Below, piece by piece: positions 13,011-19,083 of a DNA stretch of 64,000 bases. Location: positions 1,054,001 through 1,118,000 of the forward strand of contig NZ_QTTQ01000009.1 of assembly GCF_003384935.1 (NCBI RefSeq), read 5' to 3'. A program made the position numbers and the translations under genes. Source of the DNA: Lutibacter oceani (lineage in GTDB: Bacteria > Bacteroidota > Bacteroidia > Flavobacteriales > Flavobacteriaceae). How positions within the stretch are numbered: the first letter of the stretch is position 1; every line of letters starts with the position of its first letter. The notes beneath the pieces are model-generated. The model made no database searches. It had not been told where the DNA came from and saw only the letters and a program-made list of their open reading frames with translations.

Positions 13011-14354
13011 ATGGAATCAAAAATAAAAGAGTTCATGAAATTAGTGAAGGTTCGTAACCAACATGAGCCTGAATTTTTACAAGCTGTACAAGAAGTAGCT
13101 GAAACCGTTATCCCTTATATTGCTAGTCAAGAGATATATAACGGTAAAAACATTTTATTAAGAATGGTTGAGCCGGAAAGAGTTTTAATGTTCCGTGTAC
13201 CATGGATTGATGACTCTGGAGAAATTATTGTAAATAGAGGTTATAGAATTCAAATGAACTCTGCTATTGGCCCATACAAAGGTGGTTTACGTTTTCATCC
13301 AACAGTAAATTTAAGTATTCTTAAATTTTTAGCATTTGAACAAGTTTTTAAAAATGCTTTAACAACTTTACCAATGGGTGGAGGTAAAGGAGGTTCAGAT
13401 TTTGATCCTAAAGGAAAATCAGATGGAGAAATTATGCGTTTTTGTCATAGTTTTATGGCTGAATTATGTCGTCATATTGGAGCTAATACTGATGTTCCTG
13501 CAGGTGATATTGGAGTTGGGGCTAGAGAAATTGGTTTCTTATTTGGTATGTACAAAAAAATGCGTAACGAATTTACAGGTGTTTTAACTGGTAAAGGAAT
13601 GTCTTGGGGTGGTTCACTAATTCGCCCAGAAGCTACAGGTTATGGTACAGTATATTTTGCACAAAGTATGCTTGAAACAAGAGGTGATACTTTAAAAGGT
13701 AAAACTGTAACAGTATCAGGTTCTGGTAATGTTGCTCAATACGCTTGTGAAAAAGCAACACAATTAGGAGCAAAAGTTGTTACACTTTCAGATTCTTCTG
13801 GTTTTATTTATGATGAAGATGGTATTGATGAACAAAAATTAGCTTTTGTTATGGAGTTAAAAAATGTAAAACGTGGAAGAATTAATGAATATGTTGAAAA
13901 ATATCCAAAAGCAAAATTCTTTAAAGGAAAAACACCTTGGGGGATAAAATGTGAAGTAGCAATGCCATGTGCAACTCAAAATGAGGTAAATGGAGAAGAT
14001 GCTAAAACATTATTAAATAATGGTTGTTATGTTGTTAGTGAAGGAGCAAATATGCCTTCTAGACCAGAAGCTATTGAAGCTTTTCAAGGTGCAAAAATAT
14101 TATATGCTCCAGGAAAAGCATCAAATGCAGGTGGTGTAGCAACATCTGGTTTAGAAATGAGCCAAAACTCTTTACGTATTAATTGGACACGTGATGAGGT
14201 TGATGAAAGACTTAAAAAAATTATGAAAGATATTCACGATTCTTGTATCAAATTTGGTAAAAAAGATGACGGATATATAGATTATGTAACTGGTGCAAAC
14301 ATCGCTGGTTTTGTTAAGGTTGCTGATGCAATGTTAGCACAGGGTGTTGTTTAA
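13011..14354 (+). CDS. gdhA: Glutamate dehydrogenase, NADP-type
   Basis: At 447 residues this is a hexameric GDH of the short bacterial class. The active-site segment LTTLPMGGGKGGSDFDPKGKSD carries the catalytic Lys and substrate contacts. The dinucleotide fold has SGSGNVAQYACEKA followed by SDSSG after the second strand, the pattern of E. coli NADP-dependent GdhA, so an assimilatory role (ammonium plus 2-oxoglutarate to glutamate) is most likely. It is the first of two GDH genes that flank the receiver/ATP-grasp protein. A strong terminator follows at 14382. Confidence 0.94.
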   Translation: MESKIKEFMKLVKVRNQHEPEFLQAVQEVAETVIPYIASQEIYNGKNILLRMVEPERVLMFRVPWIDDSGEIIVNRGYRIQMNSAIGPYKGGLRFHPTVNLSILKFLAFEQVFKNALTTLPMGGGKGGSDFDPKGKSDGEIMRFCHSFMAELCRHIGANTDVPAGDIGVGAREIGFLFGMYKKMRNEFTGVLTGKGMSWGGSLIRPEATGYGTVYFAQSMLETRGDTLKGKTVTVSGSGNVAQYACEKATQLGAKVVTLSDSSGFIYDEDGIDEQKLAFVMELKNVKRGRINEYVEKYPKAKFFKGKTPWGIKCEVAMPCATQNEVNGEDAKTLLNNGCYVVSEGANMPSRPEAIEAFQGAKILYAPGKASNAGGVATSGLEMSQNSLRINWTRDEVDERLKKIMKDIHDSCIKFGKKDDGYIDYVTGANIAGFVKVADAMLAQGVV

Positions 14355-14477: not shown

Positions 14478-17400
14478 ATGAAAAAAAAACTATTACCAAA
14501 CCTAAAATCTTACATATTTGAAGAAGTTGCTTTTGATAAATTAATGCAAAACCGAATTAATAAGGTATTAATAGTTTGTTCTAATTACGATTATTATATG
14601 CTTGAAGAAGATGGAAGAATTGATGAACGTATTTTTAATGAATACACTTCATTAAATTTAAGATATCCCCCAAGTTTTATACATGCAAATTCTGCTAAAA
14701 GAGCTATTGTAATGTTAGCTTCTGATAAAATAGATATGGTTATTACCTGGTTAGATATTGGTAATTATAAAGCCTTTGAAACCTCTAAAAAAATTAAAGA
14801 AGCTTTTCCTAAAGTACCAATTGCAGCATTAAGCCATTATTCTTCCGAATTAAGAAGTAAGCTAGAAAAGGGAAATACCGGAATTATTGATTTTGTTTTT
14901 CACTGGAATGGAAATGTAGATATATTTTTAGCTATAATTAAATTAACAGAAGACAGAATGAATGCCGAAAGAGATATTAATGATATTGGCGTTAAAGCTA
15001 TATTATTGGTTGAAGATTCTTTAAAATTTTATTCCAGGTATATACCACTTATTTATAAAGTTATCCTAAAACAAACCCAGGCATTTATGTCTGAAGGATT
15101 AAACGAGCATAGAAAAATGTTGTTAATGCGTGGCAGACCTAAAATTTTGTTGGCTACAGTTTTTGAAGAAGGTATTAGTTTGTTTGATAAATATAGAGAT
15201 AATTTATTGGGAGTAATATCAGATGTAAATTATTTAAAAGATGGAGCTCGAAATTCAGAAGCGGGATTCCTATTTTTAAACTATGTAAGAAATTATAATC
15301 GCTATTTTCCAATTCTAATTCAATCTTCAGATGCAAATAATGAAAAAAGAACCCTAGAACTTAAGGGAAAGTTTTTATATAAATATTCTGAAACTTTAGG
15401 TGTAGATATTAAAAATTATATTACAAAATACTTTTCGTTTGGAAATTTTGAATTTTGGGATCCAATCCAAATGAAAGTGTTAGCCATTGCTAAGGATTTA
15501 AGTGAATTTCAAATAGCCTTAAATATGGTAACTGAAGATTGTTTGGTGTATCATGCTAAAAGAAGTGAATTTTCTAAATGGTTAAAATCAAGGGCTCTTT
15601 TTCCGTTAGCGGATTTATTTAGTAATATTGAATACGACGATTTTGAAGATGAGCATCACATTAGAGAGTTTCTAATTAACTCCATTAAGGCTTATCGCGT
15701 TTATCGTTCAAGAGGTGTAATTGTAAAATTTGATAGGCGAAAATACGATGAATTTGTTGGGTTTTCAAGAATTGGAGAAGGAGCTTTAGGAGGAAAAGGA
15801 AGAGGCCTAGCGTTTATAGATTCATTTTTAAAACGTAATAAATTATTCAACAAATATGAAAATGTAAATATTTCCATACCAAGAACTGTTGTAATAAGTA
15901 CCGAAGTTTTTGATCAGTTTATTGAAAACCATAAACTTATAAAATTTGCTGCCGAAAGTTCTAATGATGAAGAAATATTAAAAGAATTTATTTCAAAAGA
16001 GCTTCCACAATGGGCACTTCAAGACATTAAAGCATTTTTAAAAACCACCAAGTCTCCCATAGCAATTCGTTCGTCAAGTATGTTGGAAGATTCTAATTAC
16101 CAACCGTTTGCAGGAGTTTTTGCAACATATATGGTGCCAAATACTGAAATTAAGAAAATGGTTGAAATGGTATCAAATGCAGTAAAATCAGTTATTGCAT
16201 CAGCATTTTTTGAAAGCAGTAAACTGTATTTAAAAGCCACTTCGCATACAATTGAAGAAGATAAAATGGCTGTAATTTTACAAGAGGTTATAGGAAAACA
16301 ATACCAGGATGTTTATTATCCAAATATTTCAGGAGTAGCTCGTTCAATTAATTTTTATCCAATTGGCGATGAAAAACCAAATGAAGGAATTGCAAATATT
16401 GCTTTAGGTTTAGGAGAAATAATTGTTGGTGGTGGACAAACGTTACGTTTTTCACCATTTCATCCAAAAAAAGTATTACAATTATCTTCTCCAGCTTCAA
16501 CACAAAGAGATACGCAACAATATTTTTATGGGTTAGATATAAATCCTGATAGTTATAAAGTTTCAACAAGTGAGTCCATCAATAAAAAGAAAATAACAAT
16601 AAGAAAAGCTGAAAATCACGGTTCTTTAAAATTTGTAGCTTCAACCTACGATTTGCAAAATAATACCATTAGACCAGGTGTAATGCACGATGGTATTCGG
16701 GTAATTTCGTTTGATAATATTTTAAAATACAACACTTTTCCATTACCAGAAATTTTGCAAGATTTACTTAGAATTGGACAACGAGAAATGAGAAATCCAA
16801 TTGAAATGGAATTTGCTGTTAATCTTGATGTGCCGCAAGGAAAACCAAAAGAATTTAGTTTTTTGCAAATAAGACCCATTATTGAAAGTATAGAAACAAG
16901 TAGTAATTTACCTGAAAATTTTGATATTTCTGATACAATTATTTATTCTGAATCTGCTTTAGGAAACGGAAAATATGAAAACATTTATGATGTTATTTAT
17001 GTAAAGCCAGAAACTTTTAATGCGGCAAATACTAGGCAAATAGCTGCTGCGGTTGATCAAATAAATAAAAAGTTTGCAGCAATGGACAGGCATTATATTT
17101 TAGTTGGCCCAGGAAGGTGGGGATCTAGCGATCCTTGGTTGGGAATTCCGGTAATTTGGCCTCAAATTTCAGCAGCAAAAATAATTGTTGAATCGGGTTT
17201 AAATAATTTTAGAATTGATCCTAGTCAAGGAACTCATTTTTTTCAAAATTTAACATCATTTAAAGTCGGATATTTAACTATTAATCCATTTATAAATGAT
17301 GGCTTTTTTGATGTAGATTATTTAAACCAGCAACCAGCTCTTTTTGAAGATGAGTATTTAAGACATATTTGTTTTAAAAAGCCACTTTCAGTTATAATTG

Positions 17401-17507
17401 AAGGTAAAAATAATAAAGCTGCAATTTTTAAAGAAGGTTTTTCTATTGAGGAGGTTGTAACAACTGAAGATTCAATTGAAGAATTACCACCAGATGGATT
17501 TATGTAA
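14478..17507 (+). CDS. Two receiver-like domains fused to a PEP-synthase-type ATP-grasp domain
   Basis: The start is ATG 14478; a TTG 27 bases upstream is also open but less likely. The 1009-residue product has a degenerate receiver-like domain (about 25-160) and a second receiver (about 174-315). The second keeps the acidic pair in ILLVEDS, a phospho-acceptor Asp near 249 in GVISDVN, a Ser in ILIQSSD and a Lys near 302. A PPDK/PEP-synthase N-terminal ATP-grasp domain follows (about 430-800), with GALGGKGRG, AIRSSSMLED and LQIRPI. The phosphohistidine swivelling domain and the PEP-binding barrel are absent. A C-terminal region of about 200 residues carries GPGRWGSSDPWLGIP and is of unknown type. 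It is not a standard PEP synthase. It lies between the two glutamate dehydrogenase genes, so a regulatory role in carbon/nitrogen metabolism is inferred. Confidence 0.8.
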   Translation: MKKKLLPNLKSYIFEEVAFDKLMQNRINKVLIVCSNYDYYMLEEDGRIDERIFNEYTSLNLRYPPSFIHANSAKRAIVMLASDKIDMVITWLDIGNYKAFETSKKIKEAFPKVPIAALSHYSSELRSKLEKGNTGIIDFVFHWNGNVDIFLAIIKLTEDRMNAERDINDIGVKAILLVEDSLKFYSRYIPLIYKVILKQTQAFMSEGLNEHRKMLLMRGRPKILLATVFEEGISLFDKYRDNLLGVISDVNYLKDGARNSEAGFLFLNYVRNYNRYFPILIQSSDANNEKRTLELKGKFLYKYSETLGVDIKNYITKYFSFGNFEFWDPIQMKVLAIAKDLSEFQIALNMVTEDCLVYHAKRSEFSKWLKSRALFPLADLFSNIEYDDFEDEHHIREFLINSIKAYRVYRSRGVIVKFDRRKYDEFVGFSRIGEGALGGKGRGLAFIDSFLKRNKLFNKYENVNISIPRTVVISTEVFDQFIENHKLIKFAAESSNDEEILKEFISKELPQWALQDIKAFLKTTKSPIAIRSSSMLEDSNYQPFAGVFATYMVPNTEIKKMVEMVSNAVKSVIASAFFESSKLYLKATSHTIEEDKMAVILQEVIGKQYQDVYYPNISGVARSINFYPIGDEKPNEGIANIALGLGEIIVGGGQTLRFSPFHPKKVLQLSSPASTQRDTQQYFYGLDINPDSYKVSTSESINKKKITIRKAENHGSLKFVASTYDLQNNTIRPGVMHDGIRVISFDNILKYNTFPLPEILQDLLRIGQREMRNPIEMEFAVNLDVPQGKPKEFSFLQIRPIIESIETSSNLPENFDISDTIIYSESALGNGKYENIYDVIYVKPETFNAANTRQIAAAVDQINKKFAAMDRHYILVGPGRWGSSDPWLGIPVIWPQISAAKIIVESGLNNFRIDPSQGTHFFQNLTSFKVGYLTINPFINDGFFDVDYLNQQPALFEDEYLRHICFKKPLSVIIEGKNNKAAIFKEGFSIEEVVTTEDSIEELPPDGFM

Positions 17508-17695: not shown

Positions 17696-19033
17696 ATGAA
17701 TGTTAAAGAGATATTAACAAATTTAGAAACCAAACATCCTGGAGAAAAAGAATATTTACAGGCTGTTCATGAGGTTTTAGAGTCTATTGAGACTATATAT
17801 AATGAAAATCCACAATATGAAGCTGCTAAAATTATTGAACGTTTAGTTGAGCCAGATCGAATTTTAACCTTTAGAATTTCGTGGATGGATGATGCTGGAA
17901 ATGTTCAAGTTAATTTAGGACACAGAGTACAATTTAATAATGCAATTGGCCCGTATAAAGGAGGAATTCGTTTACACCCAAGTGTAAATTTAAGTATTCT
18001 TAAGTTTTTAGGGTTCGAACAAATTTTTAAAAATGCGTTAACAACTTTACCAATGGGTGGAGGAAAAGGAGGATCAGATTTTAACCCAAAAGGAAAATCG
18101 GATGCTGAAATTATGCGTTTTTGCCAAGGTTTTATGTTAGAACTTTGGAGAGTTATTGGTCCAAGTACCGATGTTCCTGCGGGAGATATTGGAACTGGAG
18201 GTAGAGAAATTGGATTTATGTACGGTATGTATAAAAAACTGCAACACGAAAATTCTGGAGTTTTTACCGGTAAAGGCTTAAATTGGGGTGGAAGCTTAAT
18301 TAGACCTGAAGCAACGGGTTTTGGAGGAGTTTATTTTACAAAAGAAATGTTAGATACCAAAAATGACAATTTTGAAGGTAAAACAATAGCGCTTTCAGGA
18401 TTTGGAAATGTTACTTGGGGTGTTGCTCTAAAAATAACTGAATTAGGTGGAAAAGTTGTTACAATATCCGGTCCTGATGGTTATATTTATGATGAAAATG
18501 GGTTAGATGCCGATAAAATTGATTATTTATTAATGTTAAGAGCTTCAAATAATGATGTTGTTGCTCCTTATGCTGAAGAATATCCTGAAGCTACCTTTTA
18601 TCCGGGAGAAAAACCTTGGGGTGTAAAATGTGATATTGCTATGCCTTGCGCTACTCAAAATGAACTTGATGCTGAAGATGCTGAAAAATTAGTAGCTAAT
18701 GGTGTTCAATATGTGGCTGAAGTTTCAAATATGGGATGTACTCCAGAGGCAATAGATGTATTTCATAATGCAAAAATATTATATGCTCCTGGAAAAGCAG
18801 TGAATGCTGGTGGTGTTGCCGTTTCTGGATTAGAAATGTCTCAAAACGCAATGAAATTAAATTGGACAAAAGATGAAGTTGATGCTAAATTACATCAAAT
18901 TATGCATTCTATTCATACAGCTTGTTTAAAATATGGTACTCAGGAAGATGGTTATATTAACTATGTAAAAGGTGCAAATATTGCTGGTTTTATTAAAGTT
19001 GCAGATTCTATGTTAGACTTAGGAATAGTGTAA
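17696..19033 (+). CDS. gdhB: Glutamate dehydrogenase, probable NAD-type
   Basis: The 445-residue product is clearly a GDH, with LTTLPMGGGKGGSDFNPKGKSD at the active site, and is paralogous to the gene at 13011. The coenzyme region differs: SGFGNVTWGVALKI and then SGPDGYIYDENG, the pattern I associate with NAD-dependent GDH of Clostridium symbiosum. The mid-region with FYPGEKPWG and VANGVQYVAEVSNM also fits that subgroup. I infer a catabolic or reversible NAD-linked enzyme complementing the NADP enzyme upstream. The coenzyme call is from motifs only. Confidence 0.85.
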   Translation: MNVKEILTNLETKHPGEKEYLQAVHEVLESIETIYNENPQYEAAKIIERLVEPDRILTFRISWMDDAGNVQVNLGHRVQFNNAIGPYKGGIRLHPSVNLSILKFLGFEQIFKNALTTLPMGGGKGGSDFNPKGKSDAEIMRFCQGFMLELWRVIGPSTDVPAGDIGTGGREIGFMYGMYKKLQHENSGVFTGKGLNWGGSLIRPEATGFGGVYFTKEMLDTKNDNFEGKTIALSGFGNVTWGVALKITELGGKVVTISGPDGYIYDENGLDADKIDYLLMLRASNNDVVAPYAEEYPEATFYPGEKPWGVKCDIAMPCATQNELDAEDAEKLVANGVQYVAEVSNMGCTPEAIDVFHNAKILYAPGKAVNAGGVAVSGLEMSQNAMKLNWTKDEVDAKLHQIMHSIHTACLKYGTQEDGYINYVKGANIAGFIKVADSMLDLGIV

Positions 19034-19054: not shown

Positions 19055-19083
19055 AAAAGGGTTGCTAATTAGCAACCCTTTTT
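19055..19083 (+). terminator. Intrinsic terminator after the second gdh
   Basis: AAAAGGGTTGCT / AGCAACCCTTTT with an AATT centre and a short T run. It sits directly against the promoter-like element of the next gene. Confidence 0.85.

What the first reader, a model, noticed from the sequence alone, without database searches (positions are those of the whole stretch)
14478..17507. Receiver-receiver-ATP-grasp protein between two glutamate dehydrogenases
The protein has two receiver-like domains, the second with a complete set of acidic, phospho-acceptor, Ser and Lys positions, joined to a PEP-synthase-type ATP-grasp domain. The phosphohistidine and PEP-binding domains needed for PEP synthase are missing and a C-terminal region with GPGRWGSSDPW of unknown type is present. 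It sits between an NADP-type and an NAD-type GDH gene. The inference is a signalling or phosphotransfer regulator tied to carbon/nitrogen metabolism; annotating it as PEP synthase would be wrong.
Basis: partly seen in the sequence, partly recalled or inferred. Interest (0 to 1): 0.62.

Follow-up and report, generated by a model that had tools for sequence, protein, structure and literature searches.

The report
Glutamate-dehydrogenase-linked receiver/ATP-grasp regulator
A large, uncharacterised bacterial protein that joins signal-receiver domains to a kinase-like ATP-using module is found again and again near genes for glutamate dehydrogenase, so it is probably a dedicated controller of that central nitrogen enzyme.

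Summary
The gene is real: 14478-17507, 1009 aa, single copy in its genome. Layout: pseudo-receiver, receiver with all phosphoryl-transfer residues, linker, PPDK/PEP-synthase-type ATP-grasp, and a C-terminal domain unknown to Pfam. No PEP barrel. The C-terminal domain folds confidently alone (pLDDT 89); its best, moderate structural matches are swivelling phosphohistidine domains, and it holds the only histidine shared by all 182 relatives (H920). So the phosphohistidine domain is probably diverged, not missing.

The dehydrogenase link is strong. In 395 genomes of the phylum, 51 of 65 full-length genes lie within 600 bp of a GDH, and all 54 carriers encode one. Distant paralogues sit near another GDH type. 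In near relatives the constant unit is this gene plus the downstream GDH (49 of 51); the upstream GDH is optional (30 of 57). Against: 5 of 130 Bacteroidales carriers show no GDH, and in one genus only 13 of 36 genes are within 600 bp.

Best reading: a dedicated GDH regulator using dikinase chemistry; the phosphate acceptor is unknown.

The parts
14478..17507 (+). RRA protein, 1009 aa (receiver - receiver - linker - ATP-grasp - swivel-like domain)
14556..14966 (+). REC1, residues ~27-163: receiver fold without acidic pair, acceptor Asp or Lys (pseudo-receiver)
   Evidence: fold; residues:
14988..15449 (+). REC2, residues ~171-324: receiver with E179/D180, D249, S283, K302
   Evidence: fold; residues; Pfam above cut-off in two relatives:
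15222..15224 (+). codon of D249, predicted phospho-acceptor Asp
   Evidence: 126 of 126 ~1000-aa and 9 of 9 long unique relatives
15450..15707 (+). linker, residues ~325-410 (limits approximate); DUF5752-like in relatives (21 of 41 members at E<=0.01), not in the window protein itself
15783..16895 (+). PPDK_N-type ATP-grasp, residues 436-806, with K440, R531, E778, Q797, R799
16899..17432 (+). C-terminal domain, residues ~808-985, swivelling-fold-like, with GxGRWGxxD and SxGxHFF
17235..17237 (+). codon of H920, candidate phosphohistidine
   Evidence: 182 of 182 unique relatives in four length classes
17696..19033 (+). GDH2, the conserved partner glutamate dehydrogenase
   Evidence: downstream of the gene in 49 of 51 near relatives
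13011..14354 (+). GDH1, ordinary hexameric-type glutamate dehydrogenase; optional neighbour
   Evidence: upstream in 30 of 57 near relatives
19055..19082 (+). terminator-like hairpin (12 pairs) after GDH2; none found on the + strand between GDH1, RRA and GDH2
   Evidence: 3 such sites in the region against 3.4 in shuffles, so the scan as a whole is at chance level

Best explanation
It is a dedicated regulator of glutamate dehydrogenase (GDH). The ATP-grasp binds ATP and, as in PEP synthase, PPDK and rifampin phosphotransferase, probably phosphorylates a histidine (H920) on the C-terminal swivelling domain. With no PEP barrel to receive it, the phosphoryl group would go to a protein: the partner GDH, or D249 of REC2, which would then gate the module. 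The REC pair would take in a signal (a histidine kinase, acetyl-phosphate, or the module's own His-P) and set GDH activity by modification or binding. Shown here: domain layout, conserved catalytic residues, recurrent nearness to several GDH types. Inferred: His phosphorylation, its acceptor, and the direction of the effect. My sub-estimates: GDH is the regulated partner 0.65; ATP-to-H920 phosphorylation 0.5; H920-to-D249 relay 0.25.
For: Neighbourhood: 51 of 65 full-length genes within 600 bp of a GDH, 56 of 65 within 3 kb; 54 of 54 carrier genomes have a GDH of this family; all 19 genomes with two such GDHs are carriers. In Bacteroidales, all 74 genomes with two or more such GDHs are carriers and none of the 15 carrier-free GDH genomes has two. 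Arrangements differ: co-directional downstream of GDH, upstream of GDH, divergent, convergent. Paralogues: the long Bacteroidales form lies divergent from a GDH1-type gene within 2.6 kb in 6 of the 9 in hand (loci chosen mostly because a GDH was on the contig); the ~1000-aa Bacteroidales form lies near GDH2-type, or in three cases PRK14031-type, genes; the 580-aa form is within 600 bp of another, ~30%-identical GDH in 14 of 16, and the distant 776-1066-aa form within 2.5 kb in 23 of 30. The GDH2-type clade (23 rows) held none of 40 GDHs sampled from the 79 carrier-free GDH genomes. Chemistry: K440, R531, E778, Q797 in 182 of 182; H920 in 182 of 182, the only His shared by all classes. Fold: ATP-grasp Z 17.6 to PEP synthase; the C-terminal domain's top nine rows are PPDK, rifampin-phosphotransferase and Enzyme I swivel domains and a pyruvate kinase C-terminal domain, Z 5.5-6.8.
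Against: No experiment. The C-terminal match is Z below 8, where the tool warns of common arrangements; Foldseek gave no hit at E<=0.001, HHalign against PPDK swivel domains gave nothing, and the stretch that holds H920 is the least sure part of the model (block mean 64; under 50). Five of 130 Bacteroidales carriers show no ELFV dehydrogenase over the cut-off; three of these are 97% complete. In the genus of G238 only 13 of 36 near-full-length genes are within 600 bp of a GDH and 22 of 36 within 3 kb (9 lie on contigs without one). Nine of 65 in the phylum sample have no GDH within 3 kb. Copy numbers do not always match: two full-length copies went with two GDHs in 11 of 11 genomes of the phylum sample, but 9 of 56 Bacteroidales genomes with two or more matches have one GDH. 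Synteny among relatives is not independent. In the window's family 38 of 41 GDH-bearing genomes of the sample have no full-length RRA, so such GDHs work without it. No residue separated GDHs of carriers from others. No histidine kinase was sought genome-wide; one sensor kinase gene lies about 5.5 kb from the gene in Parabacteroides.
Confidence: 0.6

Rival explanations
1. It is an activator or assembly partner of GDH: it binds GDH and is needed for activity, with ATP and receiver states only switching its shape; GDH is not covalently modified.
For: Same neighbourhood evidence. [quoted passage not shown] from memory, a 3-kb downstream segment restored activity in E. coli. In two genomes (L095, L098) a convergent RRA of about 3 kb begins 91-304 bp after the 3' end of the PRK14031-type gdh.
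Against: Invariance of ATP-grasp catalytic residues and H920 argues for catalysis. In that genus the gdhA-type gene is within 600 bp in only 2 of 36 cases, and in two larger genomes a catalase gene follows gdhA instead, so the 1996 gene cannot be identified here.
Confidence: 0.2
2. It is a metabolic enzyme that uses ATP on a small molecule linked to glutamate, 2-oxoglutarate or pyruvate, and is placed beside GDH for flux reasons.
For: Known PPDK_N enzymes act on small molecules; in 3 exceptional loci a class I/II aminotransferase is the neighbour instead of GDH (L106, L128; L159).
Against: Two receiver domains, one with strictly kept residues, and no substrate-binding barrel. The 580-aa form has no receivers, however, so regulation by REC is not universal.
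Confidence: 0.12
3. A diverged PEP synthase or PPDK.
For: PPDK_N match and the top structural match to PEP synthase.
Against: NCBIfam PEP-synthase models score far under cut-off (best 58 of 883 bits); no PEP barrel; the genome has its own PPDK-like protein.
Confidence: 0.02
4. Neighbourhood is inherited synteny only and the protein acts on something else.
For: pheS is also a conserved neighbour of GDH1 or RRA in many near relatives without a known functional reason; some carriers lack GDH; adjacency is loose in one genus.
Against: Different orientations, GDH types and paralogues keep the link.
Confidence: 0.06

Closest known systems
PEP synthase / pyruvate phosphate dikinase family (PPDK_N ATP-grasp + PEP-utilizers + PEP barrel)
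   Same: ATP-grasp with conserved catalytic residues (their roles recalled from PPDK); a swivelling-fold-like domain directly after it
   Different: No PEP barrel; no recognisable PEP-utilizers sequence; two receivers in front
Rifampin phosphotransferase (RPH) and prodigiosin ligase PigC: PPDK_N enzymes with other acceptors
   Same: Same ATP-grasp; fold matches to RPH ATP domain (Z 16.7) and its swivel domain (Z 6.6)
   Different: NCBIfam scores far under cut-off (20.3 of 999; 56.6 of 1300); no small-molecule acceptor domain found
Response regulators (CheY-like receivers)
   Same: REC2 fold and residue set
   Different: No DNA-binding or usual output domain matched; tandem with a pseudo-receiver; followed by an ATP-grasp module
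GDH control proteins known elsewhere (e.g. GarA/OdhI FHA proteins of Actinobacteria; recalled)
   Same: A dedicated protein setting GDH activity (here inferred)
   Different: No FHA domain matched
GlnE/GlnD nucleotidyltransferases of nitrogen control (recalled)
   Same: 3 of 5 tested distant paralogues carry a nucleotidyltransferase domain (L134, L160, L168)
   Different: The window protein has none

Membership tests
PEP synthase / PPDK | PPDK_N ATP-grasp domain | tested here: met
   132.7 bits, cut-off 27
PEP synthase / PPDK | PEP/pyruvate-binding barrel (PEP-utilizers_C) | tested here: not met
   no Pfam match up to E 1; only one ~180-aa domain follows the ATP-grasp
PEP synthase / PPDK | phosphohistidine (swivel) domain | tested here: inconclusive
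   no PF00391 match, no HHalign match; structural matches Z up to 6.8
PEP synthase / PPDK | passes an NCBIfam PEP-synthase model | tested here: not met
   58 bits against 883
Response regulator receiver (REC2) | receiver fold | tested here: met
   Z about 13-16 over residues 171-324
Response regulator receiver (REC2) | acidic pair, acceptor Asp, Ser/Thr, Lys | tested here: met
   E179/D180, D249, S283, K302
Response regulator receiver (REC2) | Pfam Response_reg over cut-off | tested here: inconclusive
   not in the window protein (only REC1, 17.7 of 30.2 bits); over it in relatives L095 and L230
Response regulator receiver (REC1) | acidic pair, acceptor Asp, Lys | tested here: not met
   C/S/A, W/T/M and H/I/S at the positions I assigned
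Histidine kinase | HisKA / HATPase_c | tested here: not met
   no match
Rifampin phosphotransferase | passes NF041857 | tested here: not met
   20.3 bits against 999
GlnE/GlnD-type nucleotidyltransferase regulator | NTP_transf_2 domain | tested here: not met
   absent in the window protein; present in distant paralogues L134, L160, L168, absent in L154 and L156
GDH regulator | changes GDH activity | not testable with these tools
   genomic association only

The most novel reading that the evidence does not exclude
A self-contained His-Asp phosphorelay that needs no histidine kinase: a PPDK-type ATP-grasp makes phosphohistidine on a swivelling domain, which serves a receiver Asp in the same protein and/or the partner glutamate dehydrogenase. 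Together with its paralogues (with and without receivers, some with a nucleotidyltransferase) it would be a family of GDH-modifying enzymes that links ATP/AMP state to nitrogen assimilation across Bacteroidota and its sister classes.
Probability: 0.25. Interest if true: 0.88.

Novelty: new variant of a known kind. Interest (0 to 1): 0.7.

Why it matters
GDH is a main entry point of ammonia in Bacteroidota, including dominant gut genera, and to my knowledge (recall) how it is controlled there is not known in molecular terms. A gene common in Bacteroidales (130 of 149 sampled genomes have a match at E<=1e-50) and generically annotated in the one annotated record I opened ('PEP/pyruvate-binding domain-containing protein') would be the control element. 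It is also one candidate for a trans-acting activity reported in 1996, and a testable case of dikinase chemistry used for signalling.

Tried and rejected
PEP synthase/PPDK annotation: rejected. 'Between two GDHs' as the conserved unit: rejected for near relatives, because the upstream GDH1 is present in 30 of 57 and the downstream GDH2 in 49 of 51 (denominators are those of 59 loci with enough flank; the two misses are L046, where the copy tested follows GDH2, and L051). Residues that set carrier GDHs apart from 40 carrier-free GDHs: none at the thresholds used. Sequence-level proof that the C-terminal domain is a phosphohistidine domain: failed; no other known fold stood out, and absence from the lists proves nothing. 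Solved relatives by sequence: none for the single protein; with a profile 7 sequences, six receivers or receiver-bearing regulators and one ATP-binding domain, E 7e-5 to 0.07. Viral contigs: none. DUF5752 in the window's genome: none. Papers: searches; I saw listings only (titles and starts of abstracts, capped at 20 of 478, 20 of 31, 12 of 14) and passages of two papers. None seen describes this protein; the library is open-access papers only. The 1996 paper is not held; I saw its title in a reference list, and its abstract is recalled. Identifying its 3-kb region with this gene stayed open: a catalase gene sits between gdhA and RRA in L230 and follows gdhA in L231, and gdhA is within 600 bp of RRA in 2 of 36.
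Full report
1. What is there. The window ORF 14478-17507 (+) encodes 1009 aa and is single copy in its 3.38-Mb genome; the nearest named genes are from Lutibacter and Polaribacter. Pfam gives PPDK_N (436-806, E 2.4e-38) and a sub-threshold Response_reg; NCBIfam PEP-synthase models match only in part and far below cut-off. GDH genes lie on either side, 123 and 188 bp away, same strand, with no terminator-like site found on that strand between them and a 12-pair hairpin after the second (the region's 3 such sites equal the shuffled expectation, 3.4). GDH1 passes the NADP-GDH model; GDH2 passes a cofactor-neutral Bacteroides-type model and the NADP model too.

2. Domains. A 41-row AlphaFold2 model is of middling quality (mean pLDDT 69), but its receiver and ATP-grasp parts match solved structures: REC1 and REC2 at Z about 13-16, ATP-grasp to PEP synthase at Z 17.6 (rmsd 5.7 over 349 residues) and rifampin phosphotransferase at Z 16.7. 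Across unique relatives REC2 keeps E179, D249 and K302 in 126 of 126, D180 in 123 and S283 in 125, whereas REC1 lacks these positions but keeps Y37, D38 (125 of 126) and W143 (126). The linker resembles DUF5752 in 21 of 41 members, over the cut-off in two long paralogues, but not in the window protein itself.

3. The C-terminal domain. Folded alone it is confident (pLDDT 89.2, pTM 0.89, 16 rows), except for the block that holds H920 (mean 64). Foldseek found nothing at E<=0.001. The second look with VIA-align put swivelling domains first: pyruvate kinase C-terminal domain Z 6.8 (its kinship to phosphohistidine domains is recalled), rifampin phosphotransferase 6.6, PPDK central domain 6.5 and 6.0, Enzyme I 5.5; 12 of the 25 listed rows at Z 5.0 or more and all of the top nine. 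Several other rows (chaperonin apical domain, LD-carboxypeptidase C-terminal domain, aconitase X) are, from memory, of the same swivelling fold class. Z is below 8, so alone this is weak; but the domain follows directly on the ATP-grasp as in PPDK, and H920 (GTHFF) is the only histidine shared by all 182 unique relatives (126 of ~1000 aa, 9 long, 17 of 580 aa, 30 distant). The catalytic His of rifampin phosphotransferase and PPDK (positions recalled) would by interpolation of the aligned ranges fall within about ten residues of H920; this is not an atomic superposition. HHalign saw no sequence relation. I treat it as a probable, unproven phosphohistidine domain.

4. GDH link across genomes. 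In 395 genomes of the phylum, 54 carry 65 full-length genes; 51 of 65 are within 600 bp of a GDH of the window's type, 56 of 65 within 3 kb; all 54 carriers have such a GDH, against 79 of 341 others; all 19 genomes with two such GDHs are carriers (from; Fisher values there ignore relatedness). Two full-length copies went with two GDHs in 11 of 11. In Bacteroidales 130 of 149 genomes have a match; 125 with and 5 without GDH, 15 with GDH only, 4 with neither; all 74 genomes with two or more GDHs are carriers. Results against: the five were checked with the dehydrogenase family model and have nothing over cut-off, and three of them are 97% complete; 9 of 56 Bacteroidales genomes with two or more matches have a single GDH; and in the genus of G238 only 13 of 36 near-full-length genes are within 600 bp of a GDH, 22 of 36 within 3 kb, 9 on contigs without one. 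So the link is strong but not strict.

5. Pairing and paralogues. Near relatives: GDH2 downstream in 49 of 51, GDH1 upstream in 30 of 57. A GDH tree puts GDH2 and both Bacteroidales GDHs in one clade with no member among 40 GDHs from carrier-free genomes (40 of 79 such genomes sampled), whereas GDH1 relatives occur with and without the gene, so in Flavobacteriaceae the gene and GDH2 look like one module. In Bacteroidales a long paralogue (1156-1409 aa) is divergent from a GDH1-type gene within 2.6 kb in 6 of the 9 in hand (not in L215, L217, L219), and the ~1000-aa form is near GDH2-type or, in three, PRK14031-type genes; these loci were partly chosen because a GDH was on the contig. In other classes a 580-aa form without receivers is within 600 bp of a different GDH (about 30% identical to the window's) in 14 of 16, and a distant form of 776-1066 aa within 2.5 kb in 23 of 30. 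The two such GDHs tested have the archaeal-type GdhA model as best match, under its cut-off. A nucleotidyltransferase domain is in 3 of 5 distant paralogues tested. Exceptions include three loci where an aminotransferase is the neighbour.

6. Literature. No paper on this protein was seen in the listings of the held library (searches and caps under Tried and rejected). A reference list (PMC4539542, passages only) gives Baggio and Morrison 1996, whose title states that GDH activity of B. [quoted passage not shown] The abstract is recalled: a 3-kb downstream segment restored activity in E. coli. In L095 and L098 a convergent RRA follows the PRK14031-type gdh within 91-304 bp, but that holds for 2 of 36 in the genus, and in L230 and L231, larger genomes of it, a catalase gene follows. 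The identity is therefore open. The same paper lists the B. fragilis NAD(P)H GDH under three entry numbers of its 2D-gel table, which fits modified forms but has other explanations.

7. Verdict. It works like the ATP-grasp/His half of PPDK with receivers attached; it is not a member of the PEP synthase family.

Noticed in passing
L134:4808-7987; L160:7431-10562; L168:7443-10181: Distant PPDK_N paralogues with a C-terminal nucleotidyltransferase domain (3 of 5 tested); the distant group as a whole lies within 2.5 kb of another GDH type in 23 of 30. May be a second GDH control system.
   Followed up: partly
L133, L136-L147, L149: A 580-aa form consisting of ATP-grasp plus C-terminal domain only, next to a different GDH type and mostly followed by the distant paralogue.
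   Followed up: partly
L210, L211, L212, L213, L214, L216: Long Bacteroidales paralogue with about 180 or more extra N-terminal residues, divergent from a GDH1-type gene; R799 is K in 9 of 9 long forms.
   Followed up: partly
L106:9368-10588; L128:5613-6671; L159:10681-11958: Class I/II aminotransferase beside the gene or its paralogue where no GDH was found beside it.
   Followed up: no
L048:7989-10803; L126:7911-10919: The gene is split into two ORFs, by frameshift or assembly error.
   Followed up: no
L230:8154-9614; L231:4136-5596: Catalase gene directly downstream of gdhA in two genomes of the genus of G238.
   Followed up: no
PMC4539542, proteome table: B. fragilis NAD(P)H GDH appears under three entry numbers in a 2D-gel table (passage), as charge variants would.
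   Followed up: no
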